64,000 nucleotides of DNA, from positions 1,860,001 through 1,924,000 of the forward strand of contig NZ_CP063353.1 in NCBI RefSeq assembly GCF_014931565.1, in the 5' to 3' direction. Positions 24,131-61,116 of this stretch are shown here, piece after piece. The translations under genes and the position numbers were made by a program. The DNA comes from Clostridium sp. 'deep sea'. Lineage in GTDB: Bacteria; Bacillota; UBA994; PWPR01. The first letter of the stretch is position 1. The number at the start of each line of letters is the position of its first letter. The notes beneath the pieces were generated by a model, which was given only the letters and a program-made list of their open reading frames with translations, was not told the origin of the DNA and did no database searches.

Positions 24131-24170
24131 TAACTAAAAACCTCAACGTCTCTGTTGAGGTTTTTTATGG
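24131..24170 (-). terminator. Terminator of the AraC-type gene; insertion target of intron copy 1
   Basis: CCTCAAC and GTTGAGG form a perfect 7-bp stem around AGAGAC, flanked by A and T tracts, directly after the regulator's stop codon. The intron's first base follows 4 bases beyond the T-tract. Confidence 0.9.
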
Positions 24171-25004
24171 TTATAAATTCTTTATCTGATATTGTTTTGG
24201 CGTAATATGGTAGATTTTTTTGAACTGGCTTATAAACGACGAGACATTTTCAAATCCCAGTTCATAAGCCACCTCTGTTACCGAATTCTCTTTTAGCAAC
24301 TGTTCAGCTAATTTCATTTTCACTTCATGAATATAGTTCATAGGTGTCATTTTAAAGTTGCGTTTAAACGTGTTGGTAAAATTTGAGCTGTGCATGCCTA
24401 CCAAATCGGCTAAATCACTGATTTTGATATTACGATTTACATTCCTAGCTATATACTGCTTTACCTGCTCCATTGGATGTTTGGCTTTAATAGAAAATAA
24501 ATAGCTTGAATACTCGGTTTTCAGCAGATTGTAAATCAGCCTACGTATGTTAAGCTCCACTAAATACGGATTCTCAGAATTCTCGACATATTCACTGTGG
24601 ATACTTTGCACGCTCTTGTAGAGTATGCTGTCATACTTAATGGGAACATATGGCCTAGGATCGTATATGGCATTATTAAACGGCTGCTTATTCTCAATAT
24701 TGCTGAAAACCGACTTAGTCAATTCATCGCATACTTCAATAACCATCATTTTGGTGGGCTTCTGCGCACGCACTGTTAAATCAGAATAGAAAGGCAGCAA
24801 CATCATCTCCGTATTCTTCTGGCATATGCTTTCACTGCCAAACAAATATTCAATCTTCCCCCACAGAACAGCAATCAGTTGTATTCGATCTTTGGTTTTG
24901 TAGCCGCATCTGTAATTCTGCATCAACTCGTAATATGTTATTGAGGAATTGCCCATCTTGTAAGAGTGCCTATTCTTAAGACTGTCATGAACAATATTAG
25001 TCAT
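24171..25004 (-). CDS. AraC-family transcriptional regulator
   Basis: 277 aa. The C-terminal ~100 residues hold the two AraC helix-turn-helix motifs (NIKISDLADLVGMHSSNFTNTF and VTEVAYELGFENVSSFISQF KKIYHITPKQY split over the domain). The N-terminal part looks like a cupin-type sensor (IQLIAVLWGKIEYLFG). RBS AGGTGG precedes ATG 25004. It is divergent from the hydrogenase operon starting at 25161, so it probably regulates that operon and itself; the 156-base gap would hold its operator. The ligand is unknown. Confidence 0.88.
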   Translation of the reverse strand: MTNIVHDSLKNRHSYKMGNSSITYYELMQNYRCGYKTKDRIQLIAVLWGKIEYLFGSESICQKNTEMMLLPFYSDLTVRAQKPTKMMVIEVCDELTKSVFSNIENKQPFNNAIYDPRPYVPIKYDSILYKSVQSIHSEYVENSENPYLVELNIRRLIYNLLKTEYSSYLFSIKAKHPMEQVKQYIARNVNRNIKISDLADLVGMHSSNFTNTFKRNFKMTPMNYIHEVKMKLAEQLLKENSVTEVAYELGFENVSSFISQFKKIYHITPKQYQIKNL

Positions 25005-34886: not shown

Positions 34887-34952
34887 TTAATTGTTTATGT
34901 TTTACGGGTGCATAACTCCCGACACTAATGACAAGTGTACTCCGTTTGCGTC
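34887..34952 (-). pseudogene. tmRNA remnant d
   Basis: Aligns with ssrA from the region 5' of the tag toward the 5' end: TTAATTGTTTATGTTTTACG, then CATAACTCCCGACAC versus CATAATTCCCGACAC, then CTCCG and GCGTC versus CTCCA and CCGTC in ssrA. Same strand as ssrA. It lies between the helicase/110 aa pair and the methylase gene. It lacks the 3' half and acceptor stem. Confidence 0.75.
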
Positions 34953-37372: not shown

Positions 37373-37865
37373 TGTACCCTCCTAAAATGTATAATTATTT
37401 TATACTAAAATTAATTTTTCTAGATAAACTAGACGAAAACAGTTTCCTGTATTTACAATTTTATCATTATATAATTATAAATACTATACTTTGAAATAAT
37501 AATTTTATAAAAGTGACATAAATAATTAGATCATTCTCAAAACCCTCTGCAATATTGAAAAAATGGTCTCTCCCCCTCTTGCGTTAATTAATTAACGTAA
37601 AAAATCAACGAACATATTCTGAGCATTGTCTTACTAGTTAATAATCATAACCAACCGTTAAAAGATAGACTGTATTACCATATAGAAAGTTGCAGTCACA
37701 CCTTGGGTTTGACTACTTCCATATAAACTAAAAAAAACCGACCATTTCTGGCTGAGTCTGTTATTTACTTAATAGTGTTTTAATTATACAGCTTTCGCTC
37801 TGTGCTATTATTGCCAAAGCCATAGTGATATTTAACTACATGTAGTTAAATGATATTATATGAAC
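37373..37865. other. Intergenic region with a 16-bp perfect palindrome
   Basis: No gene seen. A perfect palindrome CGTTAATTAATTAACG lies at 37581-37596, about 210 bases upstream of the helicase start, and could be an operator or a protein-binding site. Near the right end the sequence AATGATATTATATGAACAC matches the sequence before array D at 59742. Confidence 0.5.
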
Positions 37866-37950
37866 ACAACACGCGTAAGCGTATATCACGCACAAAGTGC
37901 ATATCACTCGACTATGGAGAAATATCATAAACTGGTACAATTCATATAAC
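37866..37950. repeat. Hairpin array B (ATATCAC-type), intron-free site
   Basis: Units ACGCGTAAGCGT, GCACAAAGTGC, TCGACTATGGAGA and AACTGGTACAATT are separated by ATATCAC or close variants. At its right end CATATAACTAAAAACC runs into the terminator without an intron, giving an empty intron site. Confidence 0.85.
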
Positions 37951-38013
37951 TAAAAACCTCAACATTTCTGTTTATTATGACCCCCATACCACCTCCACAG
38001 AAAAAAACGGGCG
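37951..38013 (-). pseudogene. Terminator half joined to tmRNA remnant c
   Basis: AACTAAAAACCTCAACATTT is the left half of the repeated terminator. It runs straight into CTGTTTATTATGAC and ACGGGCG, matching the central pseudoknot part of ssrA near 60923-60972 at roughly 80% identity. So an internal deletion has joined the two. It is not functional as tmRNA. Confidence 0.7.
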
Positions 38014-42218: not shown

Positions 42219-42274
42219 TAGCGATAGCGCCTTCATGTGGGTAGTACACTTCACTTGTCGCAGGCAAACTTCAT
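42219..42274. repeat. Short hairpin array (ACTTCAT-type)
   Basis: Stems GCGATAGCGC, GTGGGTAGTAC and TGTCGCAGGCA are separated by CTTCAT, ACTTCACT and AACTTCAT. It is the same kind as arrays at 60321-60712, and again lies between a terminator and other DNA on the 3' side of a tmRNA (remnant e). Confidence 0.7.
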
Positions 42275-42275
42275 T

Positions 42276-42317
42276 AAAAAACCTCAACCAATTAATTGAC
42301 TGATTAAGGTTTTTTAT
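42276..42317 (-). terminator. Terminator-like hairpin next to tmRNA remnant e
   Basis: AAAAAACCT and AGGTTTTTT flank a further AATTAATT-centred pairing. It has the place of the tmRNA terminator in the repeated tmRNA-terminator-array module. Confidence 0.65.
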
Positions 42318-42323
42318 ATAGAC

Positions 42324-42405
42324 AGCGTATGCTAATCTATTATTTTTAGCGTTTAATTTAGATTTATGTTTTACGTATTGCATATTTCCTGGCACAAAAA
42401 ACAAG
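42324..42405 (-). pseudogene. tmRNA remnant e (tag region)
   Basis: Matches ssrA through the tag: on the minus strand the tag codons read AKNNRLAYA, against AKNNKLAFA in ssrA, followed upstream by CATAAATC..., AAACGCT and GGAAATATGC corresponding to GGGAATTATG. The 5' and 3' acceptor parts are missing. Clearly older than remnant b. Confidence 0.75.
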
Positions 42406-45499: not shown

Positions 45500-45552
45500 T
45501 ACAAGTGCATATCACCCCCTTAGAGGATATCACGAACCGGTTACGGTTCATA
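45500..45552. repeat. Hairpin array C (ATATCAC-type), shortened
   Basis: Contains CAAGTGCATATCAC, then CCCCTTAGAGG, ATATCAC, then GAACCGGTTACGGTTC, and ends CATA at the intron 3' boundary. Homologous to arrays B and D but lacking their first units. Confidence 0.75.
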
Positions 45553-47426: not shown

Positions 47427-47463
47427 TAACTAAAAACCTCACCATTTCTGTTGAGGTTTTTAT
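47427..47463 (-). terminator. Repeated terminator, target of intron copy 2
   Basis: CCTCA and TGAGG with A and T tracts; two inner pairs are mismatched compared with the copy at 24131. It joins TATGGTGG, the tmRNA 3' terminal sequence, to tmRNA remnant b. Confidence 0.8.
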
Positions 47464-47603
47464 GGTGGCCGCCTAAACTTTTGTTAGGCTGAGAATGCTA
47501 ATTTATTGTTTTTAGCGTTTGTGTTTAATTGTTTATGTTTTACGGGTTGCATAATTCCCGACACGAAGGGCAAGTATGCTCCGCTGGCGTCGTGGGGAGT
47601 GTA
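47464..47603 (-). pseudogene. tmRNA remnant b (near-identical tag region)
   Basis: From CCGCCTAAACTTTTGTTAGG through the tag codons (AKNNKLAF, then TC in place of GC) and up to AATTCCCGACACG it differs from ssrA by only a few bases, then diverges toward the 5' end. The 3' half is deleted: TATGGTGG, the 3' end, is joined straight to CCGCC. It cannot fold an acceptor arm. The high identity in one part suggests recent duplication or gene conversion. Confidence 0.85.
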
Positions 47604-47635: not shown

Positions 47636-48331
47636 TTACTGAATATAGCCAGTTTTTTCAATTATATCTTCAATATCTCTTAGCCACTCTTTTTGCTTAT
47701 TGTAATCTTGAGGCAATGGATGGTAATATAAATTATCTATTTTCAGTTTCCCAAAAGTCCTCATATGCTTAACTTTATCATATGCCTGGTTTGCTAAAGC
47801 TTTTAACTTACTATCAACTCCCCAAGCCAATAAATATAATGATTTATCACTCATCAATCCTTGAAGTTCTTCAGCTCTTGAGTCAGAAAAAATTGAGTGG
47901 CATAAAATATTATTATACTTTGTTTTAGAGACTTTTTTTTTAAATACACTACTTTTTGGTTCTCTTACATCAGATATATTAAGAATTCTAGCATGCCGAA
48001 AATTAAACTTTGACATGAACCTCATAATTTGATATTGAGTATTATCTGGTATTGTCTCTGTTAGGTCATTCAATCCTATGTCTTTAATATTGCTATTGTA
48101 ACTACTTTCCTGATAGCTCTTATATTTCGGACTTGAAGATCCCGGATTCATCATAATTGCAATAATATCAGGCTCATAATTTGCATAGTTCATATAATCA
48201 TACTCATTATAATCATTCTTTACTATTTCAAGCACATTACGACAAGGAATATAAACATCTTTCATAATGAATAATTTAAAGAATGAGCCATAAACACCAT
48301 ATTGTTTATCTAAATATTTTTTGCTAATCAT
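47636..48331 (-). CDS. DUF1643-like protein at the end of the defence-like operon
   Basis: 231 aa. The segment DIIAIMMNPGSSSPK followed by PDNTQYQIMRFMSKFNFRHARILNISDVREP has the order of DUF1643 proteins (MLNPSTAD ... DPTI ... NL), a family of unknown function often found with mobile and defence genes. YLLAWGVDSKLKALANQA fits its later conserved part. The start overlaps the nuclease gene by 8 bases, so translation is coupled. The family assignment is moderate, and no catalytic residue can be named. Confidence 0.6.
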   Translation of the reverse strand: MISKKYLDKQYGVYGSFFKLFIMKDVYIPCRNVLEIVKNDYNEYDYMNYANYEPDIIAIMMNPGSSSPKYKSYQESSYNSNIKDIGLNDLTETIPDNTQYQIMRFMSKFNFRHARILNISDVREPKSSVFKKKVSKTKYNNILCHSIFSDSRAEELQGLMSDKSLYLLAWGVDSKLKALANQAYDKVKHMRTFGKLKIDNLYYHPLPQDYNKQKEWLRDIEDIIEKTGYIQ

Positions 48332-49304
48332 TCAATTCACCTGTCAAGTAACATTTACTAATCTTATTCAAGTAGCTATATTTCTCATCATCAGGCAAAT
48401 GTACCTTTATCTTGATGAATCTACGTATCTTTTCGTTTTTAAACTCTTTTATATATGGAATATCTATAGTGAAAATTTCATTTCCTTTTTCAGCTAAATC
48501 TATACGGTTGATAACTCTGTTTGCTATAGCGTTTGGTAGAGTAAATACTATATATTTCGCTTTTACATGAAGATGAAATGCTGTTTCAGTTTCATACTCA
48601 ACCCTATGGGATTTTATTGCTTCTACTATTTCACTATAATTATTATCAAGAGCATCTAGATCATTTAACCAGTTATCTTCACCTACTAAAGCAACTGGAT
48701 AATTATCATCTAGAATTCCCATAGCAACACTAGGATAATCTTTTAATAGACTCTTGTTTGACTCTCGTTCTTCTTCTGTGAACTGCCAAAAATCATCAAC
48801 TACAGATTGTTTTGTTGCATTTTCAAGATAGGATTTCCTGCTAACTGCATATTCTGCAAATTGTGAAATCCTCTCAAGTATCGGCTCTAGAAAAGGATTC
48901 CTATAGAAACTAACTAAAAATATGTTTTGAGCCCATGCATATTCTTGAGCATCAATAGTGTACTCAGAAGCACTAAAGAAGCACCCTGCATCATTATATC
49001 TATCTAAGCTATTTGCATTATGGTGAGCTATAGTAAAGTAGTTTTCTGATATGTCCTTTACCACCCCTACAAAATTTCTGATATTATGCAATTGAATTTT
49101 TCTTTTATAATATTTGCATTCACAGATTAGTCTTATTCGATAAATAAATGCCGTTGGAAAACTAAGAAGTCCATATGCATCTATTTGATGCTCAGCGCCC
49201 CTCCCTCTAATATTTCCAGATGCTACCTCTATATATCCAAATTTACTTAGGATTTTCCAAACAACTGATTCTAGAATGTACCCTCTCGCTTGATAGTCTC
49301 TCAT
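48324..49304 (-). CDS. Mrr-like PD-(D/E)XK restriction nuclease
   Basis: 326 aa. N-terminal ~110 residues: GYILESVVWKILSKFGYIEV, then RGRGAEHQIDAYG (Asp) and IRLICECKYYKRKI (E-C-K), which is the Mrr_cat arrangement of a PD-(D/E)XK nuclease; LHNIRNFVGVVKDI completes the core. The C-terminal ~200 residues are unrecognised (probably target or partner binding). AAGGAGAT precedes ATG 49304. It overlaps both neighbours, so it is a fixed member of the operon and the likely DNA-cutting subunit. Confidence 0.82.
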   Translation of the reverse strand: MRDYQARGYILESVVWKILSKFGYIEVASGNIRGRGAEHQIDAYGLLSFPTAFIYRIRLICECKYYKRKIQLHNIRNFVGVVKDISENYFTIAHHNANSLDRYNDAGCFFSASEYTIDAQEYAWAQNIFLVSFYRNPFLEPILERISQFAEYAVSRKSYLENATKQSVVDDFWQFTEEERESNKSLLKDYPSVAMGILDDNYPVALVGEDNWLNDLDALDNNYSEIVEAIKSHRVEYETETAFHLHVKAKYIVFTLPNAIANRVINRIDLAEKGNEIFTIDIPYIKEFKNEKIRRFIKIKVHLPDDEKYSYLNKISKCYLTGELND

Positions 49305-49611
49305 TTATATCTCCTTCTTTACCCAAGCTCTCTTTTTCCAAGATTGCTCTTGCCTTATTTATAGTTGCATTACTTAATCTATTTGAGTCAATAATTAATA
49401 AAAGTGCTTCAATCTGCAGATTATTTCTAAATATCCTTTGTGCACAACTAATTCGGGTGAGCTGCCCACTTATTCTTGTAGCATTTGGGTTCTCTTCTAA
49501 TAATCTTTGTGCAAAAGTATTCTTATCTAAGTTTATCTGTTTAAAATTATAATAATAATCTACAAAGATTTTCTTTCCCACTGAATTCAACCATCTATTT
49601 ATATCAGACAT
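49243..49611 (-). CDS. Small protein overlapping the nuclease gene, unknown
   Basis: 122 aa from ATG 49611, since AGGTGG lies 8 bases upstream (an earlier GTG overlaps that site). Mostly helical (INRWLNSVGKKIFVDYYYNF, LTRISCAQRIFRNNLQIEALLLII). Its last 62 bases overlap the nuclease gene in another frame, an unusually long overlap. It may act as an adaptor or control protein of the nuclease. No family recognised. Confidence 0.65.
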   Translation of the reverse strand: MSDINRWLNSVGKKIFVDYYYNFKQINLDKNTFAQRLLEENPNATRISGQLTRISCAQRIFRNNLQIEALLLIIDSNRLSNATINKARAILEKESLGKEGDINERLSSERVHSRISCLENPK

Positions 49612-49740
49612 GAGCAATTCCACCTTTCATGTTTAAAATATTTAATTACAGCTTATGAGCATTAAATGTAACTTGCAAGGATGAATTCATCTGCGTCACT
49701 CAGTATATCCAAAATATGCTTATAGTGATTGCTGTTAAGA

Positions 49741-50070
49741 TTATTTAGTACTTTTATAAGTGTCAAGCTTTCTAAGAACAAATATATTATCTTCAAATAT
49801 TTCTAAGTGCAATTCGTGAGGGTGCCCTTTTCCCCAAGTACCCACATTATTCTTAATTAAGAATTGACCAATTACTTTACTTCTTAGTTCAGAACACGTT
49901 GTCCAAAATGTAGCTCTTAATTTAATATCAATACTTTTATCTGCAATTTTTAGTGTGACATACTCCCATGTTTTATTAAAGTGCTTCTCTCTGCTTTCTT
50001 TTGGAATTCTGATACCATAACCGGCCCCACTAGTATTAAATCTACCATTGTTCCATGTTTTCACGATCAT
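49741..50070 (-). CDS. Small beta-rich protein, unknown
   Basis: 109 aa. GGAGG precedes the ATG by 10 bases. Contains GAGYGIRIPKESREKHF, IKLRATFWTTCSELRSKVIG and NNVGTWGKGHPHELHLEIF; the tail looks like a compact beta domain, possibly nucleic-acid binding, but no known family was recognised. It lies 77 bases after the 693 aa gene on the same strand. Confidence 0.6.
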   Translation of the reverse strand: MIVKTWNNGRFNTSGAGYGIRIPKESREKHFNKTWEYVTLKIADKSIDIKLRATFWTTCSELRSKVIGQFLIKNNVGTWGKGHPHELHLEIFEDNIFVLRKLDTYKSTK

Positions 50071-50147
50071 TATTAATTAACCTCCTCATTACATTTGATT
50101 TTAAATATTTTCCTAATGCAAATAGTAATGTTTATACCTAACTTTAA

Positions 50148-52229
50148 TCATTTTTGCACACCAATAAATTCTCGCAAATATTTAAATGGAAATGGCAATA
50201 CTGTACTCTGACCTGTCCTCACAAAATCTACATTCATTGTCTGCAGAATTTGCGAGAAAATAAGCTTAGAATTGCTAACAGCTATAACTTTTCTTATTCT
50301 AGTAGCTCTATCAATCTTTTTATTTATCATTTCTTTACTGCAGCCAACAAAATAATATGCTTCAGACTCAGACTGAGTATAAAAATTTATGTCTAGTGAC
50401 GACTTAAATAGAGCTTGTAAACTTTTATTATCTTTAGGGAAGTTTAACCTTACATAATAGTTTTCTAGTAAATGTTGTCTTAGTTTTCTTGCATCATTGC
50501 TATTTAATGAAAGATGATCTTTAATGAGTTTTCTTAATTTATACTTATCTAAACTTTTATTATCTAGAGTATTGATATTATTTAAAAGATTACTGACCCT
50601 ATAGCTATAATCATCTATATTAGTTCCAAAACACTCTTTAATTATCTCTACTAAATCAGAGTAGTGACAAATATTTTCAGGGAGATCTTTTTCTACTTCT
50701 ATTAATAGTTTTTTTATTTCTTCTATAGCAGGTAATGAAATTTCATTAGTATTAAATATTAAGTTTATATCGCCATCTTCAGATACTACTATGCCTTCAA
50801 ACTTCGCATATGATTCAATATTATCTTTAGTCTGCTTTATTATATCCAAATAGCTTTGATACTCCGACACCTCAAAAAAATTGTTCCCATCTACACAATC
50901 AATATCGAATTCTCCATTAGGTTTTATTGTCATAAAATGAGAGAGTCGCTTAGCTTCATCTATGGTGCCGAACACCCATCTTTTCTTAGAATCTAGTAAA
51001 TCCCAATTAAATAAAGTTACTTTTTTGCTAATAATATCTTCTTTAATCAGTAGCTCTTTTAGTATGGTCTTAACTATGGGATTAATATCTTTAGGTGTTA
51101 TATCATAATAATTTTCAATAACTAAATGTTGGCTAATATACTTTGCATCTGAAGCCTTATATTTATCAGATAGATTATTTTTCTTATAATACTCTATATC
51201 ATGAATAATTACTATATTAAACGCATCACTTTTCTCTCTCTTACCTTCTGTTATTAAGGCATTATCTGATATGTAATGTTCCTTTAATGTTTCTTTAATT
51301 GCCATTATAAATCTTTTAGATTCTACACTATCAACCTTATCAACAATTCTAATATTTTTTCCTATTAGTTTTTCTTTAAAATGTTTTGGTTTCTTAATTA
51401 TTGTATTAGTTAATTTATATGTGTCTAAAGTCTTTAAATGATTAAACTCAACTGTTAAATACTTTGATAAGTGTTGGATAACTAGATTTTTAAACTCTTG
51501 GAACATATATATACGACTTTTTTCAAATCTTCTTAATGAAGAAAAATCAATAAAAGTCTTAGTAGCTTTAGTGCCCTCTATTTCAGCTTTAACATATGCT
51601 TTTTTCAAATCTAAGTTTTTATTATTACCTAAATATCTGCTAAATGAGCTAGTGCCATTATGTATGTAGTATTTTGGTTTTTTTGCATATTTATATTTAT
51701 CTGCAATTGATATCAACTTTCGATAACGTTCTACTCTAATATTAAGAATATCACCTTTATCAAGACTAAACCTTATAGCATCAATTGTATCCCCTCTTAC
51801 AACTGGTGTCTTAATTAATGCACCGGTAAGGTTTGAATAATGAAATTGCCTATATTTTGACTTAGACGATCCAAGTGAGTTAATTAGTATTTGAGCAAGC
51901 CATAGTCCACATATACAGTCCTTAGTTTCATTTACATATGATACTCTAGGAACAACTTTCTGAACAATATCATTCTCAAAATCACCTTTAGTTCTAATAT
52001 GCTTTAAGATTTCATATATATCTAATGACTTTTTAAACATAGCATATGCATATTTTCCATACTTATATAAAACTGCTTCTGCTTGATACTCATCACCTAG
52101 CAATTTGTCTAGCTGATATGCTCTATACCATTTTCCATTATGACATCTTTCAAATCTTAAAAAGTGAAAGTCATTTTCAATTTGCTCTATATTAAAGTTA
52201 TAAATAATCTTACTTGTTCTTATTGTCAT
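50148..52229 (-). CDS. 693 aa protein coupled to the large helicase, unrecognised
   Basis: The start ATG overlaps the helicase stop (ATGA at 52226-52229), so the two are translated together. N-terminal: FHFLRFERCHNGKWYRAYQL. The middle (about 330-420) has strand-turn-strand blocks FNIVIIHDIEYYKK, AKYISQHLVIENYYDI, then INPIVKTILKELLIKEDI, and further on EGIVVSEDGDINLIF. The ISQHLVIEN plus LKELLIK pattern recalls, loosely, the MID-to-PIWI transition of Argonaute-like proteins, but I see no DEDX tetrad. It has no membrane segment and is lysine-rich. Function unknown; likely a core subunit of the defence-like complex. Confidence 0.6.
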   Translation of the reverse strand: MTIRTSKIIYNFNIEQIENDFHFLRFERCHNGKWYRAYQLDKLLGDEYQAEAVLYKYGKYAYAMFKKSLDIYEILKHIRTKGDFENDIVQKVVPRVSYVNETKDCICGLWLAQILINSLGSSKSKYRQFHYSNLTGALIKTPVVRGDTIDAIRFSLDKGDILNIRVERYRKLISIADKYKYAKKPKYYIHNGTSSFSRYLGNNKNLDLKKAYVKAEIEGTKATKTFIDFSSLRRFEKSRIYMFQEFKNLVIQHLSKYLTVEFNHLKTLDTYKLTNTIIKKPKHFKEKLIGKNIRIVDKVDSVESKRFIMAIKETLKEHYISDNALITEGKREKSDAFNIVIIHDIEYYKKNNLSDKYKASDAKYISQHLVIENYYDITPKDINPIVKTILKELLIKEDIISKKVTLFNWDLLDSKKRWVFGTIDEAKRLSHFMTIKPNGEFDIDCVDGNNFFEVSEYQSYLDIIKQTKDNIESYAKFEGIVVSEDGDINLIFNTNEISLPAIEEIKKLLIEVEKDLPENICHYSDLVEIIKECFGTNIDDYSYRVSNLLNNINTLDNKSLDKYKLRKLIKDHLSLNSNDARKLRQHLLENYYVRLNFPKDNKSLQALFKSSLDINFYTQSESEAYYFVGCSKEMINKKIDRATRIRKVIAVSNSKLIFSQILQTMNVDFVRTGQSTVLPFPFKYLREFIGVQK

Positions 52230-55200
52230 TGTTGTAGCTCCTTAAAAATAAAATCAATAGCTAAGTGATTAACCTCTTTATTCTGGATTAAAAATGGAAC
52301 TTCAATAATTGATCTTTTTTCTGAATACATTGGTCTAAAAGTAGCATTTGGTGATCCTAACATGTTAATAATAAGCACTTTTCTTGCATTACATGTATCT
52401 TTCTTTTTAATGATATTAGGAATAAATTTATCAGGTTTAGTTCTATAATTGTCTTTCCATAACTTAAAATCAATATAAATATCATCGTTTACTTTATAAT
52501 CAAACATCTCAAATTGATCTAGTGACAATTCTTTTAGCATTATTTGAGTATACTTTTCTATTATGTATTTACCACACACCTCACCAAGTGCCCCTTTATA
52601 GATATTATTAAACATAGGTGGCGTTAAGAGAAATTTTGAAGGGGAAAAACAAGTAGCAAAACTATTTTCTACAAAGTGTTCTTTTAACTCTTCTACCTCC
52701 ATAAGCTCAGTAAGCCTTGAAGATCTCTGGCTAACTTCCTGATATCCAGTCCGATATCCAAAGTAAATTTTAGAATTTCTATAATCATAGGTTTGTGAAT
52801 ACCAATAAGTAGAAGTAGAACTAGGTAACTCAACGTACAACTGTTTCCACTTACCTTCATTCTCATTTTCTCTTTCTATAAACGGTTGTTTTAATACCTG
52901 TAGCCTCATATCAATCCATTGCTGTCTACTATCATTGTTCCAAGTCTTGCTTAATTGATTATGAATATATACTGCACATCTATTACTCCGACGAGCTCCC
53001 TCGTATTGGAGTTCATCAATATTCTGTTCTTTCTTGTTATCATCAATCAATATTGATTTTAATGCCTCATATTCCATAACTGATATCATGCTTTTAGGGA
53101 GGTTAATCTTGTTAATGTATTCCTGTATTGTATTATCAGCAATAATATGAATTTTAGGAGATTTCATATTTGTTCTACATATTCTCCCTAAAGCTTGTAT
53201 AATTACTTTGTTAATAAATAAAATGAAAGCTCTTGACTTGTATAAGTTTGTCTTATCATTGTTATTATATTTGTAGTCAGTTCTTCCGATATAACTGTGA
53301 AAAGCTTGATTTAGCTTTTCATTAAATATACTTGGTGACATGGCTCCATTTTCTAATAGGAATTCAAGTTGAAATAAATACTTTATAAAATCTTTTTCTT
53401 TATTCTCTAGATTCTTAATATTTACTAATAGATTTGTAGGTTTATCTAAGTATATTGCATTGAAATCCATCTCTCCCCTAGAGCTAAAGTTATTTATCTT
53501 TATTGGGGTTACTCCTTCAGGTATTTTAAACTGTAAATTTTGACCTGCTCCTAATGTTTGGTATGTAGATATTACAAGTTTTTTATTTCCTTCACTCAAA
53601 TGCTTAAGAATATTTTTCTTTGCCTCTTCAAAATCAGACCCACTTAGTGTACATATAATATCATCAACTTCTAACTCTTTATAACCCTTATTTTCTGCAA
53701 TGTAGCTAGCATATTCAAGTATAATATTCAAATCAAATTTTGAGTCTCTATTTTTTGGATGTTTATTAAATAAGCATAAGAAAGCATGAATATCTTGGTT
53801 ATCTAAAAAATAATCCCAAACAGTTAAAATACGAACATATCTATAAAAAATATAATCTGAGTATTCATCAACATTTTCACCTACTACTATGTTTTTTAAT
53901 GCTTGGGCAGCTTCTTTATCACCAACTAAGCTCTCAAGATGTTCTAATGCAGTAGAATTATCAAAGCCAATAAAGCTTGTCTTTATATCTACATTGTTAT
54001 ACCCTAAAGTACTTTTCTTATATTGCATTCTTAGATTCTGTATTTCATTTTCTTCTAGTGTTATATATTTATCCCCTAACAAATAATGCAGAAAATCTAA
54101 ATCATAATTTCCTATGTTAGTAGGGAGTGTTGCTGTAGCTGACATACCAATTACTTTTGCATTTTTACATAGATTTGCTAAAAACATTTCTGGAGTGAGT
54201 ATAAAGTTATACATGTATACTCTAGATAAAGAGTCATGATCTTCGCTATCAACAATATCATGATATCTAAAACCCTCTTCATAAAACCCTCTTTGAAGTA
54301 TTGTCTGCTCCTTAACTCTAGTTTGGAATGGAAGATTCTGCTCCATAATATTCTTAGCTAGAAAATCAACATATGTTTTATCTAATCCTATTTGATTTAA
54401 AACAGTTCTTATTGATGACTCAATTGAATATGGTATAGAATCACTAATTTCTTCTTGCTTTAACTGATAATGATTTTTAGATATATATACAATTCCATAC
54501 TGAAAATATGTTAAGAAGCCACCTATATCAGATAATAGTGTCCAAATATTAATATGATGATCTCTATTACTTATTTCGTCTTTTATAATCCAATTAACTT
54601 TTTCTACTAAATCTTGTTTTAGTTTTATGCTTTTATTATATGAATCTAAGACATTATGATATTGATAGTCATGGAAAAGAAACGTTCTTTGATTATCAAA
54701 ATTATCCCTTTTGGATTTACATGAATACTGAAGATTATATTTTGTAAAAATATTTCTAGCTTTCTCCAAAATACTATTAATTATGTCATGGGGGGACTTC
54801 CATTGGCCTTCACTGATTTTTATTGACGTAACATCAGATACTCTTAATAACCATTCAGGGCATTGTATGTTTGTCAAATTATTATGTATTTTAAGAAAGA
54901 GGTCAACCATGTCTATTCTATGGCTCATTCCTGATTCAATAATATTATTTAAAACTCTTTCTTTTGAGGCATCAAATTCATCAATGAATATTAGTGCATT
55001 TTTAGCTAGTTTCTCTGTAAAATAATATGAGTTCTCTACTAGAGTTGTATTCTTTCTAATGAATTTATCTATACTTAAAAATAAGACAGTTCTATTCTCT
55101 GTATTAACTGCTGGGTATAATTTCTTAATCCAAGAATATTTTTTCCTATTATTTATTGCAATCAAACTTTGCCTCTTTGACTCAAATTCATTTTTGATAT

Positions 55201-55660
55201 ATTTAACTATACTTTGCCTAAATCTCGGTTCAAATGTCTGACGAATTTGATTCTTTATATTCTTCATAAGCATTTTATTTGTACTTTTATCTTGCGCCAA
55301 TTTCACGTACTCATAAAGATCTCTGTAATTCTTGTCTCTTAATTTATTAGGAATTTCATTACATACGCATAAGAGGTTATTAATAACTCCTTCTGAATTT
55401 GAGTCTATAAACAGAACATGCCTCTTAAAATCTTCTATTCTATTATTAACTTCAAACTTCTTTTTCATGTCACTATATGGTAAATTTTTCTTGAGATTAG
55501 TTATAAAAAATATTTTTCTGTTTTGTGATGAAAACTTTTCGTAATTATCATAGATAAAATTAATTACATTATATGTTTTTCCAAAACCTGTTGGCATACT
55601 TAATAAGAGTAAACCGTTTTCAGAATTGTTTAAGCAATATTTTTCTAGAATATTTATCAT
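52226..55660 (-). CDS. Large SF2-type helicase of the defence-like operon
   Basis: 1144 aa. Walker A SMPTGFGKTYN (residues 21-31), motif II ALIFIDEFDAS (near 228; DEFD rather than DEAH), motif III-like VIGMSATATLP, a C-terminal helicase domain with KLVISTYQTLGAGQNLQF, and motif VI QALGRICRT (near 823). Motifs I and II are about 200 residues apart, so there are large insertions. The last ~230 residues (KYIIEKYTQIMLKELSLDQF, NDDIYIDFKLWKDN) contain a D-x-D/FK arrangement that might be a nuclease remnant, but this is weak. RBS AAGGAG precedes ATG 55660. First of the tightly coupled pair with the 693 aa gene. Confidence 0.85.
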   Translation of the reverse strand: MINILEKYCLNNSENGLLLLSMPTGFGKTYNVINFIYDNYEKFSSQNRKIFFITNLKKNLPYSDMKKKFEVNNRIEDFKRHVLFIDSNSEGVINNLLCVCNEIPNKLRDKNYRDLYEYVKLAQDKSTNKMLMKNIKNQIRQTFEPRFRQSIVKYIKNEFESKRQSLIAINNRKKYSWIKKLYPAVNTENRTVLFLSIDKFIRKNTTLVENSYYFTEKLAKNALIFIDEFDASKERVLNNIIESGMSHRIDMVDLFLKIHNNLTNIQCPEWLLRVSDVTSIKISEGQWKSPHDIINSILEKARNIFTKYNLQYSCKSKRDNFDNQRTFLFHDYQYHNVLDSYNKSIKLKQDLVEKVNWIIKDEISNRDHHINIWTLLSDIGGFLTYFQYGIVYISKNHYQLKQEEISDSIPYSIESSIRTVLNQIGLDKTYVDFLAKNIMEQNLPFQTRVKEQTILQRGFYEEGFRYHDIVDSEDHDSLSRVYMYNFILTPEMFLANLCKNAKVIGMSATATLPTNIGNYDLDFLHYLLGDKYITLEENEIQNLRMQYKKSTLGYNNVDIKTSFIGFDNSTALEHLESLVGDKEAAQALKNIVVGENVDEYSDYIFYRYVRILTVWDYFLDNQDIHAFLCLFNKHPKNRDSKFDLNIILEYASYIAENKGYKELEVDDIICTLSGSDFEEAKKNILKHLSEGNKKLVISTYQTLGAGQNLQFKIPEGVTPIKINNFSSRGEMDFNAIYLDKPTNLLVNIKNLENKEKDFIKYLFQLEFLLENGAMSPSIFNEKLNQAFHSYIGRTDYKYNNNDKTNLYKSRAFILFINKVIIQALGRICRTNMKSPKIHIIADNTIQEYINKINLPKSMISVMEYEALKSILIDDNKKEQNIDELQYEGARRSNRCAVYIHNQLSKTWNNDSRQQWIDMRLQVLKQPFIERENENEGKWKQLYVELPSSTSTYWYSQTYDYRNSKIYFGYRTGYQEVSQRSSRLTELMEVEELKEHFVENSFATCFSPSKFLLTPPMFNNIYKGALGEVCGKYIIEKYTQIMLKELSLDQFEMFDYKVNDDIYIDFKLWKDNYRTKPDKFIPNIIKKKDTCNARKVLIINMLGSPNATFRPMYSEKRSIIEVPFLIQNKEVNHLAIDFIFKELQQ

Positions 55661-55945
55661 CTTTTTTCTCCTTCCGAATAATAACTATTATTTAGTCATT
55701 AAGATTCTTGATAAACACGAACTAATTGATAGATACGTAATTATGTTGTTGTTAATAATAAATAAATAACATTAGAAGATATACAAAAAAAAATTGTCAA
55801 GTCCAGTAATATATTTAAATTTGGTCAAGCTACAACGTCTAGTTTATGCATTGGATATATTGATGTTTGTATTATATATACTTACTACTTTAGGCATGAC
55901 TAAATATAGCTGTCTTTATTTATATTAATGCGTATTCAGGAATGT

Positions 55946-57868
55946 TTAGCTAGAATAAGAAATACGACGCTTTTTGACATCATCTTTAATACACAAATCA
56001 TCATTAATTTTAATGACAATAATAACAATAATCTTCAATATTAAGTAATAATCAATCATATACTTATTTTCATCATTAGAATTTGTTCCATGTAAATATT
56101 TATTTCTTATATCATATCCATTAGTAAATTTTGATCTATTAAGATGAAAATCAATATAATCTTGTTCATTTCTCGTAAACAGGCTACTCTCAAATATTAC
56201 AAACTGATAGTCTACAAGTTTATCAATTACTTTTCTTACATCCCTAGAATAGTGCCAGTAATTTAAGGCTCCATTATAATATAGTTCTTTAAGAATATAA
56301 ATTTCTGTTTTGTTTCTAAAATCTAAAAATTTCTCTTCAGATATATAAATTATATTATTATCAAACAACCATTGCATGTCTCTCAATTGAAATTCATCAA
56401 AATCATCTCTAGTCAACTTCTCATAAAAAACTAATTCAAAGAAGTTGTTATATTGCTTATTCCTTGATGGTAAGTAAAATATGTGACTTTGATCAGAAAA
56501 CAAGAGAAATGAGGCTGTTTTGTACCAATCACTAGAAGAATAGACGTATTTGTTCTCATTGAATGACTTAACATCTTTAATCTTAACACTAGATGAAGAT
56601 ATCTGAACTAATTCTTGGTCAATTATGCCATCCTCAACTAATACATTATATTGTTTAAATATCCTATCTATCTCAGGTAAAATTGTTCTACATTTTTCGA
56701 AGTAAGAAGCATCTCTTGAAGGCATCTTAACAATAAAATCTTCTATATGGAATTCTTTTTTAATATATACATGAAAAAACCATTCAATCATGTCTTCTAA
56801 TCTTATATTGTAGATATTTAAAACATTATAGTAACTATATAATTCAGCATTTGACAACATCTCTTTAAAACTAAATGAATGCGTTTTATTATAGATATGT
56901 GTACCTTTAGGTTGTATGATCCTTTCATAAATACCCATTTCACTTGTTTTGGGAGCCAACTCCAGCATCATCTTCTCATTGAAAAAATTAAATACGTATA
57001 TAAAGTTATTCCACAGTGTCTGAAAATCTAAATTATCTGAGATCCACTTTCTACTTACCTTTATATCAGCCATCATTCCATTCATAGAAAGTATAATAAC
57101 TTCTTTCTGATTATCTGGATATGATATTTTTACACTAGTTTCTATCCCACTTCCATTTTTAAAAATTTTTGTTTCCTCGTCTTCAGTTTTTCTTTTAGCA
57201 TGTAATTTAATTTTATCAGTTATAGTTAAACCTTTATCGTTTGGAAATGTAATGATTTTTCTTAATATATTGATATTTACTTGAGGTGACGAAATATAAT
57301 CATTTATTAAACTTAAACTTTCTATATTGCTTAAAGATATCGGCAAATATAACTTATTTTCTCCTAGATATTTTGATAAAATTAATCTTGCATTATCTGA
57401 ATCAGAAATCAACTCACTTTTTACTTCCTCATCGTAATAATCTGTTAACCTTTTTAACTTAAGAATTGAGAGGATTTGTACATTATCTTTGGCTAAAAAT
57501 TGTCTAAACTCCCTTGAATCAATCTTCTTAAATATTTTTAAGTTATTAAAAATCTCAAAAAAATCATCTGTATGATTGTAGTTAATTTCATCATAAAATT
57601 TTAAGTATTCATCATTGTTTTCTGCTATAAACATCCCTATTTTCTTGTGTATTTTTTTCTCATACTGATTAATATCAATACCAGTCTCTTGAGCCAGACA
57701 ATCTTTAAATCTAGTAATACTAATGTATTTCAGTACATTATGAAAATCGAGTAACTCTGTAATTTTCCATTCCTTATCAATTTCATTAGCATTGATTTTT
57801 TCGATTATTTTTTTTAATTCAATACCAACTATCATGTCATGTTCAGAGTAAAACTTTATATTTGACAT
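55946..57868 (-). CDS. 640 aa protein with C-terminal HEPN-like motif
   Basis: GGGGTG precedes ATG 57868. Most of the protein is unrecognised and helical. The C-terminus reads NGYDIRNKYLHGTNSN near residue 585, followed by a helix YYLILKIIVIIVIKIND. The R-N-K-Y-L-H sequence is the R-x4-H motif of HEPN ribonucleases, and the NxxDIRN...HG setting is like DUF4209/abortive-infection type C-termini. So this may be the RNA-cutting effector of the system. It lies 285 bases upstream of the helicase gene on the same strand. Confidence 0.65.
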   Translation of the reverse strand: MSNIKFYSEHDMIVGIELKKIIEKINANEIDKEWKITELLDFHNVLKYISITRFKDCLAQETGIDINQYEKKIHKKIGMFIAENNDEYLKFYDEINYNHTDDFFEIFNNLKIFKKIDSREFRQFLAKDNVQILSILKLKRLTDYYDEEVKSELISDSDNARLILSKYLGENKLYLPISLSNIESLSLINDYISSPQVNINILRKIITFPNDKGLTITDKIKLHAKRKTEDEETKIFKNGSGIETSVKISYPDNQKEVIILSMNGMMADIKVSRKWISDNLDFQTLWNNFIYVFNFFNEKMMLELAPKTSEMGIYERIIQPKGTHIYNKTHSFSFKEMLSNAELYSYYNVLNIYNIRLEDMIEWFFHVYIKKEFHIEDFIVKMPSRDASYFEKCRTILPEIDRIFKQYNVLVEDGIIDQELVQISSSSVKIKDVKSFNENKYVYSSSDWYKTASFLLFSDQSHIFYLPSRNKQYNNFFELVFYEKLTRDDFDEFQLRDMQWLFDNNIIYISEEKFLDFRNKTEIYILKELYYNGALNYWHYSRDVRKVIDKLVDYQFVIFESSLFTRNEQDYIDFHLNRSKFTNGYDIRNKYLHGTNSNDENKYMIDYYLILKIIVIIVIKINDDLCIKDDVKKRRISYSS

Positions 57869-58067
57869 CTTTACACCCCATCATTGTTATAATTAAGCAA
57901 ATAATTAAAAAGTTATTATAGTAATTAATTTTTACCTATTATCTCTAAACAAAGTATTACTTTATTTTTCTATTAATTTATGAAGTACTTAGCAAAAATA
58001 CATACCATTCTGATGTGCAAAACTCTTTGATAAAAAGACTTGTTGTATTTAATTTAGATTAACTTGA

Positions 58068-58259
58068 TTAATGAAACAATGATGATTCATTTTTGAAAAC
58101 ATTTTCAATAGACTTACCCGTACCTAAAATTTTTCTCTCATTAATAAACTTATCTATTACTTCTGTTCTCTTAAGATACAACTTCTCTAGTTTTTGCTGT
58201 TTAAGATTCTGCGCTTCTAATAATTCAAAATAATAAGAATATTTTTTGTCTAATAACAT
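58068..58259 (-). CDS. Small coiled-coil-like protein, tentative
   Basis: 63 aa, with heptad-like leucines (FELLEAQNLKQQKLEKLYLK). AGAGGG lies only 1-2 bases before the ATG, a poor spacing, so the start is uncertain. It is inside the operon, between the 640 aa gene and the split gene. It may be real, but there is no family evidence. Confidence 0.4.
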   Translation of the reverse strand: MLLDKKYSYYFELLEAQNLKQQKLEKLYLKRTEVIDKFINERKILGTGKSIENVFKNESSLFH

Positions 58260-58291
58260 ACCCTCTAGTTACAACTAATACTTTTATGTAC

Positions 58292-59377
58292 TTAATACAA
58301 TGTGATTAATCTCAATTCTTCTTCATTTGCACAATATTCTAAAGCAATTAATACCTTATACATTTTAGTTTCTGTTCCATTTTTTACATCAAACTCAACT
58401 AAGACATTAAATTTTGATACATTATAATCTTCTAGAAATTCTAAATTGAAAATATAGTTATTTCTTATTTTAGTCTTAATTATCATTTCTAATTCTTTTG
58501 AATCTATATTAAGGAGTTCAATTCTTTTTAGAATATCTGTTTTATTTACTTTTAAATAATTTAGTTTTCTATCATCGATATTGATACTTAAGTTATTAAA
58601 ATTTTTAACATCATCATTGATAGCATTAATTGAAAAACAGATATCCTTTAGGTCTTCATCAAATAATCTCTCAATTTTATAAGTTAATAATACCCCATAT
58701 AATGATAGGGGAATACTTCTCACATGAAATCCATTTTCTTCAAAAGGATATGAGTAAATATTTACATTTTCATCAATTGATCTATCATCTTCATGTCCCA
58801 TAATTATTTTATTACCACATTTGATAAAAGAGCCACACAATATATGTGAACAGTACTCCTTTAATAGAGATGTATAAGTAAAAACTACAAGACCAGCAAA
58901 ACCGAGAAAGTTCTTTAATCCTTCAGCTAAACTTTGTATCATATTGTCTGTAACATTATTAATATACACCATAAAAAATTGGCTACTATGTTGATAATCT
59001 ACATGTAATGCTTTATGATCAAGTAAAATCTCCCTAAGTAACTATTGGTTATTAATAATGTCAATATAATCTCCACAAAGAAAACTATTTACTGATTGAT
59101 TATCAAGAACCTTAATAATTTCACTAAAAATAGGGTATGAATACCATGCATTCTCTATTTTACTTGAGTCAAAAACCAACATTACTTCTTTTTTCTTCTT
59201 GTTAGGAATAAGTGCATATTTCAGCTTCTGATACTCAATTTTTTTGGACCTTAATATACTACAAAGAGTTTTATGCATACAATTATTATTTATTAGCATT
59301 TGCTTACTATTAAGCGAAAAATGTTTTTGCATCACTTCCAACATCACATTTCCACGTGCATTTAATGTAAAAATCAT
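58292..59377 (-). pseudogene. One 361-codon gene split by a single in-frame TAG
   Basis: From ATG 59377 (GGAGAG 9 bases upstream) the frame runs to TAG at 59042-59044 (ending DIINNQ). In the same frame, 23 codons later without any stop (LLREILLDHKALHVDYQ), comes MVYINNVTDN and on to a stop at 58292. The internal ATG at 58972 has no ribosome site. So this is best read as one gene with a nonsense mutation, or one that needs readthrough. It would be the first gene of the operon. A central hydrophobic stretch (NFLGFAGLVVFTYTSLL) may be buried or membrane-near. Family unknown. Confidence 0.65.
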
Positions 59378-59395
59378 ACTATCCACTCTCTCCAT

Positions 59396-59757: not shown

Positions 59758-59763
59758 ACAAAA

Positions 59764-59840
59764 CACGCGTAAGCGTATATCACGCACAAAGTGCATATCA
59801 CTCGACTATGGAGAAAGATCACGAACTGGTACGGTTCATA
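59764..59840. repeat. Hairpin array D (ATATCAC-type), intron-free site
   Basis: ACGCGTAAGCGT, GCACAAAGTGC, TCGACTATGGAGA and GAACTGGTACGGTTC are separated by ATATCAC, ATATCAC and AGATCAC. It continues CATATAACTAAAAAAC into the terminator, a second empty intron site. About 90% identical to array B. Confidence 0.85.
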
Positions 59841-59875
59841 TAACTAAAAAACTCAACATTTCTGTTGAGGTTTTT
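59841..59875 (-). terminator. Repeated terminator (former tmRNA terminator)
   Basis: CTCAAC and GTTGAG stem with A and T tracts, followed by the tmRNA 3' terminal sequence TATGGTGGAGGC. This is the arrangement expected directly behind a tmRNA gene. Confidence 0.85.
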
Positions 59876-59887
59876 TATGGTGGAGGC
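59876..59887. repeat. 12-bp direct repeat of the tmRNA 3' end (left copy)
   Basis: TATGGTGGAGGC is identical to 60751-60762, which is the 3' end of ssrA plus two bases. The two copies bound an 863-bp segment with the four-helix-bundle gene and two hairpin arrays, as an attachment-site duplication would. Confidence 0.7.
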
Positions 59888-59892
59888 TGCTT

Positions 59893-60255
59893 TCATTTCT
59901 TACTTTCCATATTTCTTTTTGTTGTATTAATTGAAGTTATTAATAGTACTCTTATGGTTGAGCAAAGTTTATCTATTTTGTTGTAATACTCTTTACTTAT
60001 GTAATTAGTCTTAAGTAGCAACTCAAGCCAATATCCTGTCTCGTTTGCCTCCTTTAATGCTATCTGTAACTTCGCTATAAAGTCTGCTTTACTATGTGCG
60101 TATTGGGATTCTCGAATATTTGCTCCAATTGATGTACCACTTCGACCTACTTGCCTTGAAATAATAGATTCTTTTTTGCTTTTAAGTTGCTTTACTAATT
60201 CTATAATTTCTACTGCTAAGTCCATTGATAAGTCTGCTAGTTTGTTATTTTTCAT
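59893..60255 (-). CDS. Four-helix-bundle protein (23S rRNA intervening-sequence/Avd-like family)
   Basis: 120 aa. The family signature is clear: LADLSMDLAVEIIELVKQLK, then SIISRQVGRSGTSIGANIRE, then FIAKLQIALKEANETGYWLELL. GGTGATAAA precedes ATG 60255. The family (TIGR02436 type) is found inside 23S rRNA intervening sequences and as Avd-like accessory proteins of diversity-generating retroelements; members form basic pentamers that bind nucleic acid. No reverse transcriptase is adjacent here. The gene lies in a small segment bounded by copies of the tmRNA 3' end and rich in hairpin arrays, which may be its substrate. Confidence 0.88.
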   Translation of the reverse strand: MKNNKLADLSMDLAVEIIELVKQLKSKKESIISRQVGRSGTSIGANIRESQYAHSKADFIAKLQIALKEANETGYWLELLLKTNYISKEYYNKIDKLCSTIRVLLITSINTTKRNMESKK

Positions 60256-60320
60256 TTTATCACCAGTTTTTATTAAAACATAATAAATTGTTTATTTAAA
60301 GGGTTAATTTATATACAATT

Positions 60321-60485
60321 AATGAAGCGTTACTGCGTAACATTAAGTATTTCTTCGCAATATGAGATGCCTAATGGCAATGAAGTGAAGTTCTCCAGTC
60401 ATGTACGACAATACACTTCATTAGTGTAGCGACTTCACGTGCGTAGCACACTTCACTTGCCGCAGGCAAACTTCATTCACCATAT
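60321..60485. repeat. Hairpin array E (ACTTCAT-type)
   Basis: Short stems such as GTTACTGCGTAAC, TTGCGAAGAA-like, GCCTAATGGC, GTGCGTAGCAC and TTGCCGCAGGCAA are separated by ATGAAGT/ACTTCAT-like heptamers. The loop-stem sequences vary, whereas the spacers are constant. Ends with CTTCATTCACCATATA, shared with array F, so E and F are tandem copies of one module. Confidence 0.8.
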
Positions 60486-60539
60486 AAATAAACTCTTTAA
60501 TCTTATGTATTTTATAAATGTGAAGAACTTTATGATTTT

Positions 60540-60712
60540 ACTAAAATGAAGTGTCACTGCGTGACATGAAGTATTGCGTTGCAATATGAGGTGCCTATCG
60601 GCAATGAAGTAAAGTTTGCACATATGTGCGATAGCACACTTCATGTACGAAGTACACTTCATATCCCTTTAGGGATACTTCACTTGCCACAGGCAAACTT
60701 CATTCACCATAT
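60540..60712. repeat. Hairpin array F (ACTTCAT-type)
   Basis: Clearest array: GTCACTGCGTGAC, ATTGCGTTGCAAT, GCCTATCGGC, GTACGAAGTAC, ATCCCTTTAGGGAT and TGCCACAGGCA, each a perfect or near-perfect stem, separated by ATGAAGT, ATGAGGT, ACTTCAT, ACTTCAT and ACTTCACT. It ends directly before the ssrA terminator. Confidence 0.88.
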
Positions 60713-60716
60713 ATAA

Positions 60717-60750
60717 TAAAACATCCTGCTAAGCAGGATGTTTTATTATA
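60717..60750 (-). terminator. ssrA terminator
   Basis: AAAACATCCTGCT and AGCAGGATGTTTT form a perfect stem flanked by ATAATA/TATTAT, starting right after the tmRNA 3' end. Confidence 0.93.
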
Positions 60751-60762
60751 TATGGTGGAGGC
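60751..60762. repeat. 12-bp direct repeat of the tmRNA 3' end (right copy, in ssrA)
   Basis: TATGGTGGAGGC, partner of 59876-59887. It overlaps the last ten bases of ssrA. Confidence 0.7.
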
Positions 60763-61116
60763 GGGGGGAATCGAACCCACCGTCCGCAAGCAAGTGTTCA
60801 GGAGCTTCTACGTGTGTATTTTCCGATTTTTATTTAACCTTTGGGATCTTCCGGAAACTAAATAACCCGCGGGCGATCCAGTGAATTTCCCTTTATGCAT
60901 ACTGGCGTTTGCTAAAAGGTATCCTGTTTATTATGACACCCGGTACCATCTCTACAGGAAAGAGACGGGCGGATGGCCGCCTAAACTTTTGTTAGGCTGC
61001 GAATGCTAATTTATTGTTTTTAGCGTTTGTGTTTAATTGTTTATGTTTTACGGGTTACATAATTCCCGACACGCTACTCAAGACTACTCCACTCCCGTCG
61101 AAACCAGTGCGCCCCC
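60753..61116 (-). ncRNA. ssrA: tmRNA (transfer-messenger RNA)
   Basis: 364 nt. The 5' end GGGGGCG pairs with CGCCTCC before an encoded ACCA 3' end; the T arm reads GGTTCGATTCC with a GGTGG/CCACC-type stem, and the 5' region has the CTGGTTTCGACGG block of tmRNAs. The tag frame ends AKNNKLAFAA followed by TAA. The pseudoknot region follows (GTCTCTTTCCTGTAGAG). It rescues stalled ribosomes together with SmpB, which is encoded directly upstream. This is the only complete copy in the window; four decayed pieces exist elsewhere. Confidence 0.96.

What the first reader, a model, noticed from the sequence alone, without database searches (positions are those of the whole stretch)
59876..60762. Possible 0.9 kb mobile unit at the ssrA 3' end: four-helix-bundle gene plus two hairpin arrays between 12-bp direct repeats
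TATGGTGGAGGC occurs at the end of ssrA (60751-60762) and again at 59876-59887. Left of the second copy are the terminator and ATATCAC array that elsewhere in the window directly follow tmRNA pieces. So the simplest history is that a unit with its own terminator, ACTTCAT arrays F and E, and the four-helix-bundle gene was inserted into the tmRNA terminus and rebuilt it. The four-helix-bundle family is known from 23S rRNA intervening sequences, whose mobility is unexplained; a unit of this kind at ssrA would be new to my knowledge.
Basis: partly seen in the sequence, partly recalled or inferred. Interest (0 to 1): 0.85.

Follow-up and report, generated by a model that had tools for sequence, protein, structure and literature searches.

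The report
tRNA-end units: hairpin array plus S23 gene
The small segment at the end of this bacterium's tmRNA gene is one copy of a widespread, apparently undescribed kind of mobile unit that settles at the 3' ends of transfer-RNA and tmRNA genes, carrying its own terminator, an array of DNA hairpins and a gene of the puzzling "23S rRNA intervening sequence" protein family.

Summary
The 12-bp repeat is the ssrA 3' end (GCCTCCACCA plus TA). It lies at the true tmRNA end and again beside a terminator that, in older copies in this window, sits directly against ssrA pieces. Between the repeats are a new terminator, two hairpin arrays with ATGAAGT/ACTTCAT linkers, and a PF05635 (S23/IVP) gene that same-genus and same-family genomes lack. 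In 53 of 71 database relatives of this gene, a tRNA (14 isotypes) or tmRNA gene ends on the same strand about 260 bp upstream, followed by terminator, hairpin array and IVP gene; none has a tRNA or tmRNA gene on the opposite strand or downstream. Two units 96% identical over 975 bp sit at different tRNAs (Gln, Lys), with homology starting at the CCA. Related IVP units interrupt 23S rRNA and RNase P RNA; for RNase P RNA an empty site exists in a same-genus genome. IVP genes are generally flanked by inverted 7-bp repeat arrays. Shown: architecture, polarity, target, patchiness, movement between RNA genes. Inferred: that IVP acts on the array, and that the strand-exchange enzyme acts in trans.

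The parts
60753..61116 (-). ssrA (tmRNA), intact, tag AKNNKLAFAA; the target gene
   Evidence: ARAGORN and Rfam RF00023
60751..60762 (.). 12-bp repeat, copy at the true ssrA 3' end
   Evidence: exact match
60705..60757 (-). terminator T2 of the unit: 53-nt near-perfect palindrome just after the ssrA CCA
   Evidence: inverted self-match 52/53; DNA fold
60545..60706 (-). hairpin array E: short hairpins separated by ATGAAGT, then ACTTCAT, linkers
60321..60486 (-). hairpin array F, a diverged tandem copy of E
   Evidence: 84.7% identity to E over 72 bp and 97% over 37 bp
59893..60255 (-). IVP gene (PF05635, S23 / four-helix bundle, subfamily with TSIGANI motif), 120 aa
59876..59887 (.). 12-bp repeat, displaced ssrA 3' end
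59852..59869 (-). terminator T1, the older ssrA terminator
   Evidence: terminator scan; copies at 47427-47461 and 24131-24171, and a truncated copy near 37940, beside ssrA end pieces
59763..59832 (-). ATATCAC hairpin array beyond T1: IVP-less array with a linker type that accompanies IVP genes at tmRNA elsewhere (L202, L205)
47427..47565 (-). older copy: T1 joined directly to an ssrA remnant (98% over 100 bp) without the unit
42225..42395 (-). older copy: ACTTCAT array, another terminator and a decayed ssrA piece
37849..38013 (-). older copy: ATATCAC array, truncated T1, ssrA piece
34887..34925 (-). decayed ssrA piece
24131..24171 (-). T1 copy with TATGGT, separated from its ATATCAC array (22183-22252) by a group II intron

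Best explanation
The segment is a small mobile unit that occupies the 3' end of tRNA and tmRNA genes. Its left end is the base after the CCA. In order it carries an intrinsic terminator, so the RNA gene still ends properly, then an inverted array of short hairpins joined by a fixed 7-nt linker, then an S23/IVP gene, and in other copies often a cargo gene. The previous RNA 3' end and terminator are pushed downstream, which gives the 12-bp repeat here. Most likely the hairpin/heptamer array is the cis-acting site. The IVP protein, a four-helix bundle whose crystal relatives form five-subunit assemblies like the retroelement factor Avd, would bind it as single-stranded DNA or RNA. The strand-exchange enzyme is not encoded in the unit and would act in trans. 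Arrays without IVP at other tRNA ends are then non-autonomous relatives. Shown: parts, order, polarity, target, patchiness, movement between RNA genes. Inferred: IVP-array binding, trans enzyme, single-event insertion here.
For: Of 71 database loci with at least 450 bp upstream, 53 have a same-strand tRNA/tmRNA ending within 700 bp (median 259), with 0 on the opposite strand and 0 downstream. Fourteen isotypes plus tmRNA (L164, L202, L204, L205) are occupied. In 24 genomes, 30 of 55 subfamily-1-like genes are so placed against 0 of 10 subfamily-2 genes, with up to 9 IVPs per genome at different tRNAs. L185 (tRNA-Gln) and L196 (tRNA-Lys) are 95.9% identical over 975 bp from the CCA on and unrelated before it; L163 (Val) and L164 (tmRNA) share terminator and array. 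Displaced tmRNA ends followed by terminators lie behind the unit in the window (12 bp) and L164 (16 bp); L204 has a displaced end too. G001 (same genus) and G002 (same family) lack PF05635. IVP is 73% identical to L164's where the hosts' SmpB is 52%, implying horizontal transfer. IVP-less arrays follow tRNA terminators in the own genome. The rnpB occupied/empty pair shows a related IVP unit inserting. IVP flanks carry period-7 repeats (18.9 against 3.0 per kb) in inverted pairs (49 of 71 against 7.1 permuted).
Against: No recombinase, transposase or reverse transcriptase lies in the unit. Only a few loci show a clear displaced 3' end; 48 of 57 fail my strict test. The tmRNA 3' end in related Clostridia also receives cassettes without IVP, so in L164 the repeat may come from an older cassette rather than the IVP unit, and the same could hold here. 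The two nearest relatives are few and not closely related (ssrA 91% and 80%), so no clean strain-level empty site exists for this copy. No excision was observed. Most comparison genomes are MAGs.
Confidence: 0.72

Rival explanations
1. Ordinary integrase-made islands at ssrA. The 12 bp is an att core left by tyrosine-recombinase elements, and the IVP gene and hairpin arrays are passengers or debris at the junction.
For: ssrA is a repeated target here: older ssrA pieces, T1 copies and arrays punctuate the preceding 38 kb. tmRNA ends in related Clostridia carry other cassettes bounded by CATCTCCACCA, one in tandem. A trans-acting integrase would explain the repeats.
Against: No integrase was recognised among the ORFs read in the window (inspection; not all ORFs were profile-searched). 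A passenger would not show one strand, one order and about 260 bp spacing at 14 isotypes. Solo arrays of the same design sit at tRNAs without any island.
Confidence: 0.2
2. A host module for tRNA/tmRNA read-through, 3' processing or termination, vertically inherited.
For: Constant position after stable-RNA terminators; strong folding of the array.
Against: Absent from same-genus and same-family genomes; near-identical units at different tRNAs; horizontal-transfer signal; variable occupancy of one tmRNA site within a genus.
Confidence: 0.06
3. Chance 12-bp match, or a simple local duplication of the ssrA end, with an unrelated IVP gene nearby.
For: The repeat is short.
Against: About 0.1 matches expected in the window and 3 of 3000 simulations; the copy abuts the older ssrA terminator; the arrangement recurs at other tmRNA genes.
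Confidence: 0.02

Closest known systems
23S rRNA intervening sequences (IVS) encoding S23p/IVP, e.g. Coxiella burnetii (PMC4990558)
   Same: Same protein family; ORF flanked by repeats able to pair; the Coxiella IVS also has heptameric repeats (GACAGAT) before the ORF, variable in number among strains; sporadic distribution
   Different: Not inside an RNA gene and not expected to be cut out of a precursor; sits after the RNA's CCA with its own terminator; arrays are hairpins with 7-nt linkers; different IVP subfamily
REPtrons (REP/REPIN arrays with a RAYT transposase; PMC3733652, PMC3116915)
   Same: Gene flanked by hairpin arrays plus scattered gene-less arrays that look non-autonomous
   Different: The protein is a four-helix bundle, not an HUH tyrosine transposase; hairpin stems vary and the linker is constant, the reverse of REPs; target is tRNA/tmRNA ends
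Tyrosine-integrase islands at tRNA/tmRNA 3' ends
   Same: Same target; element restores the 3' end; short direct repeats; accretion in tandem
   Different: No integrase in the unit; under 1 kb; all isotypes used by one protein family
Diversity-generating retroelement factor Avd (4dwl, 8ub7; PMC10053308)
   Same: Same fold (Foldseek TM 0.76-0.78); described as homologous to PF05635
   Different: No reverse transcriptase, template or variable repeat beside the unit
Cyanobacterial STRR heptamers and TAACTGA heptamer repeats (PMC4679880)
   Same: 7-bp repeat arrays between genes; a Nostoc plasmid IVP gene is flanked by four AATTCGT and four ATTACGA repeats
   Different: A 'find' in that paper for four-helix and intervening-sequence terms gave no hits, so a link to IVP genes is not made there

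Membership tests
23S rRNA IVS element | Encodes a PF05635 protein | tested here: met
23S rRNA IVS element | Lies inside a 23S rRNA helix | tested here: not met
   lies after ssrA; no rRNA in the window
23S rRNA IVS element | Excised from the precursor RNA by RNase III | not testable with these tools
   needs RNA; not expected, since it follows a terminator
23S rRNA IVS element | Inverted terminal sequences flanking the ORF | tested here: not met
   arrays lie only on the 5' side of the ORF here; 0 shared inverted 9-mers between the flanks
REPtron | RAYT (IS200/605-like) transposase gene | tested here: not met
   only ORF in the unit with a family is PF05635
REPtron | Hairpin arrays beside the gene and dispersed without it | tested here: met
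Integrase-type tRNA-site island | Direct repeat of the tRNA/tmRNA 3' end at both ends | tested here: met
   12 bp here; 16 bp in L164
Integrase-type tRNA-site island | Tyrosine or serine integrase in the element | tested here: not met
   none in the 875-bp unit
Diversity-generating retroelement | Reverse transcriptase with template and variable repeats | tested here: not met
   no such ORF in the unit; the window's group II introns lie more than 12 kb away
IVP element at a tRNA/tmRNA 3' end (as defined here) | RNA 3' end, terminator, 7-nt-linker hairpin array, same-strand IVP gene | tested here: met

The most novel reading that the evidence does not exclude
PF05635 proteins define a class of minimal transposable elements without a recognisable recombinase. 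They act on arrays of 7-bp repeats (plain or alternating with hairpins) and insert these arrays into or beside structured RNA genes: 23S rRNA, RNase P RNA, and tRNA/tmRNA ends. rRNA intervening sequences, heptamer repeats such as cyanobacterial STRRs, and the hairpin arrays at tRNA ends would all be products of one mechanism.
Probability: 0.35. Interest if true: 0.95.

Novelty: new variant of a known kind. Interest (0 to 1): 0.86.

Why it matters
The function and mobility of S23/IVP proteins have been open since rRNA intervening sequences were found, and heptamer repeats have been an unexplained feature of many bacterial genomes. This finding links the two. It adds a new target class (3' ends of tRNA and tmRNA genes), gives an occupied/empty pair for RNase P RNA, and supplies many natural copies whose ends can be compared. 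That makes the mobility question directly testable with a sub-kilobase unit. It also implies that some tRNA and tmRNA genes in gut Clostridia use terminators brought in by mobile units.

Tried and rejected
(1) A perfect-hairpin count (stem of at least 6) around 31 IVP loci showed no general excess; the general signal is period 7, not hairpins. (2) A universal displaced 3' end was tested: found in only a few loci, so not claimed as general. (3) tRNA adjacency as a property of the whole PF05635 family was rejected: in the phylum sample only 3 of 22 subfamily-1-like loci have a tRNA/tmRNA within 700 bp on either side, and 0 of 49 others do; it belongs to the window gene's own lineage. (4) IVP genes near ARAGORN tRNAs among the first 30 loci: none. 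(5) Viral contigs and phage records hold few relatives, so phages are not the obvious vehicle. (7) Searches of open-access papers for a link between IVP genes and tRNA ends or heptamer arrays found only the Coxiella heptamers; subscription literature was not searchable.

Full report
WHAT IS THERE. The window is G000:C1:1860001-1924000 of a single-contig 3.83-Mb genome. ssrA lies at 60753-61116 on the minus strand. Read in its direction, the RNA ends GCCTCCACCA. Next come a strong palindromic terminator (T2) and hairpin arrays E and F, whose hairpins are separated by ATGAAGT and later ACTTCAT. Then come the IVP gene, a second GCCTCCACCATA, a different terminator (T1), and an array of hairpins with ATATCAC linkers. 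T2 plus array E folds as single-stranded DNA with z = -8.2.

T1 IS THE OLDER ssrA TERMINATOR. Copies of T1 lie at 24131-24171 and 47427-47461, with a truncated copy near 37940. Each is followed directly by an ssrA end or ssrA piece: TATGGT at 24.17 kb, TATGGTGG then 100 bp of ssrA at 98% at 47.46 kb, and an internal ssrA piece at 37.97 kb. In these copies no unit separates T1 from the ssrA sequence. So T1 belongs to the ancestral gene, and T2 with the arrays and IVP came between. The chain of remnants shows repeated events at this gene; two of the sites were later split by group II introns.

THE PROTEIN. It is PF05635 at E 8e-28. The best solved relative is 2rld at E 1e-32, with five chains in its entry. 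The model is a confident four-helix bundle. Foldseek gives 2rld at TM 0.89 and the retroelement factor Avd at 0.76-0.78. The 2gsc paper cited in PMC10053308 describes an assembly of five four-helix bundles. Two subfamilies are visible: the window's, with TSIGANI, and the one in the sampled rRNA and rnpB insertions, with SIPxNIAEG.

WHERE IVP GENES SIT. In 299 genomes of the phylum, 57 have IVP genes. Of the 71 loci examined, about 15 lie in 23S rRNA. Two same-genus loci lie inside rnpB (L084, L096), and three lie at tmRNA including the window. For rnpB, a same-genus genome has an uninterrupted gene with exons 98-99% identical; the insertion replaces the tip of a hairpin. IVP flanks are rich in period-7 repeats: 18.9 per kb within about 300 bp against 3.0 per kb further out, while other periods stay near background (14 follows 7). 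In 49 of 71 loci the upstream and downstream flanks share inverted 9-mers, against 7.1 when loci are permuted. A cyanobacterial plasmid gene has perfect AATTCGT/ATTACGA arrays on its two sides.

THE WINDOW GENE'S OWN LINEAGE. A scan of GTDB genomes with the subfamily alignment gave 80 best loci, mostly gut Clostridia MAGs. Of 71 with enough upstream sequence, 53 have a tRNA or tmRNA gene ending within 700 bp upstream on the same strand (median 259 bp), none on the other strand and none downstream. The stretch between is a terminator, then a hairpin array with a repeated linker (ATGAAG, ATGATG, GTGATG, ATGATA, TGAAAT or GCTAAA types). The window's two array types, ACTTCAT and ATATCAC, are both among these; ATATCA arrays precede IVP genes at tmRNA in L202 and L205. 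The unit occurs at 14 tRNA isotypes and at tmRNA.

EVIDENCE OF MOVEMENT. (i) L185 and L196 come from two genomes and sit at tRNA-Gln and tRNA-Lys. They are 95.9% identical over 975 bp starting at the CCA and unrelated before it; the shared part includes terminator, array, IVP and the start of a nucleotidyltransferase-like gene. (ii) L163 at tRNA-Val and L164 at tmRNA share terminator and array. (iii) One genome can hold up to nine IVP genes at different tRNAs. (iv) Same-genus and same-family genomes of the window lack PF05635. (v) The window IVP is 73% identical to L164's, although the hosts' SmpB proteins are 52% identical. (vi) Within the genus of L164's host, the tmRNA 3' end carries IVP units, solo arrays, other small cassettes or nothing.

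DISPLACED ENDS. The old RNA end plus terminator is found behind the unit in the window (12 bp) and in L164 (16 bp, tmRNA), and a displaced tmRNA end lies behind it in L204; L237 (tRNA-Gln) shows two nested generations. Most loci show none by my test (48 of 57), and in L164 the repeat may belong to an older cassette, since its near relative L322 has the same T1 after a different insert. I therefore do not claim that the 12 bp is a fixed target duplication.

SOLO ARRAYS. In the own genome, ACTTCAT arrays without an IVP gene follow the terminators of tRNA-Arg/Ser/Ser, tRNA-Sec, tRNA-Pro and a tRNA-Leu-led cluster. Two more lie about 0.7-1.2 kb from tRNA genes. They look like gene-less derivatives.

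CARGO. Other units often have a gene directly after the IVP: GNAT acetyltransferases, a methyltransferase, an AadA-like nucleotidyltransferase, a GDSL hydrolase, a dehydrogenase, SfsA. The window unit has none, which makes it a minimal form.

MECHANISM. Shown: parts, order, polarity, target, patchy and horizontal distribution, movement to a different RNA gene. Inferred: the array is the cis site; IVP binds it, by analogy with Avd; the cutting enzyme is supplied in trans. A trans-acting integrase at tRNA ends is the main rival for the last step and would fit the other cassettes seen at tmRNA.

NOVELTY. The protein family and rRNA intervening sequences are known, and Coxiella's heptamers are noted in PMC4990558. 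I found no open-access report of IVP units at tRNA/tmRNA ends, in rnpB, or of the general IVP-heptamer link. Subscription papers could not be searched.

Noticed in passing
L084 1229-2003, L096 1807-2581; empty site L319/L275: An IVP intervening sequence inside the RNase P RNA gene of two same-genus genomes, with an uninterrupted rnpB in a third.
   Followed up: yes
L322, L331, L334, L340, L344, L345, L347 (tmRNA 3' flanks): Another small cassette of about 220 bp at tmRNA 3' ends, bounded by CATCTCCACCA, with its own terminator and a conserved hairpin; tandem in L344.
   Followed up: partly
window 22252-24131 and 45552-47427: Two near-identical group II introns, each inserted directly after the T-run of a T1 terminator copy and splitting it from its ATATCAC array.
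   Followed up: partly
window 47636-59395: Likely defence island behind the ATATCAC array: PDC-S56 match (55946-57868), DdmD-like helicase (52226-55660), Mrr-type nuclease (48324-49304).
   Followed up: no
G000:C1:1430877-1431191 (L039 5001-5315): Second IVP gene of the genome, in an array of different hairpins with GGGGAGGACT-like linkers and not near a tRNA.
   Followed up: partly
L236 about 228 bp before and 33 bp after the IVP: A direct repeat of at least 79 bp including the tRNA-Arg terminator on both sides of an IVP gene.
   Followed up: no
L010 1261-1330 (same-genus relative): A second ssrA 3'-end fragment lies downstream of ssrA in the relative without IVP, so the site is a repeated target there too.
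   Followed up: no
window 11954-12027: A short ACTTCAT array followed by a terminator, between NUDIX genes and a large repeat-protein gene, not at an RNA gene.
   Followed up: no
L168-L233, gene after the IVP: Cargo-like single genes with close spacing after the IVP gene, reminiscent of gene cassettes.
   Followed up: partly
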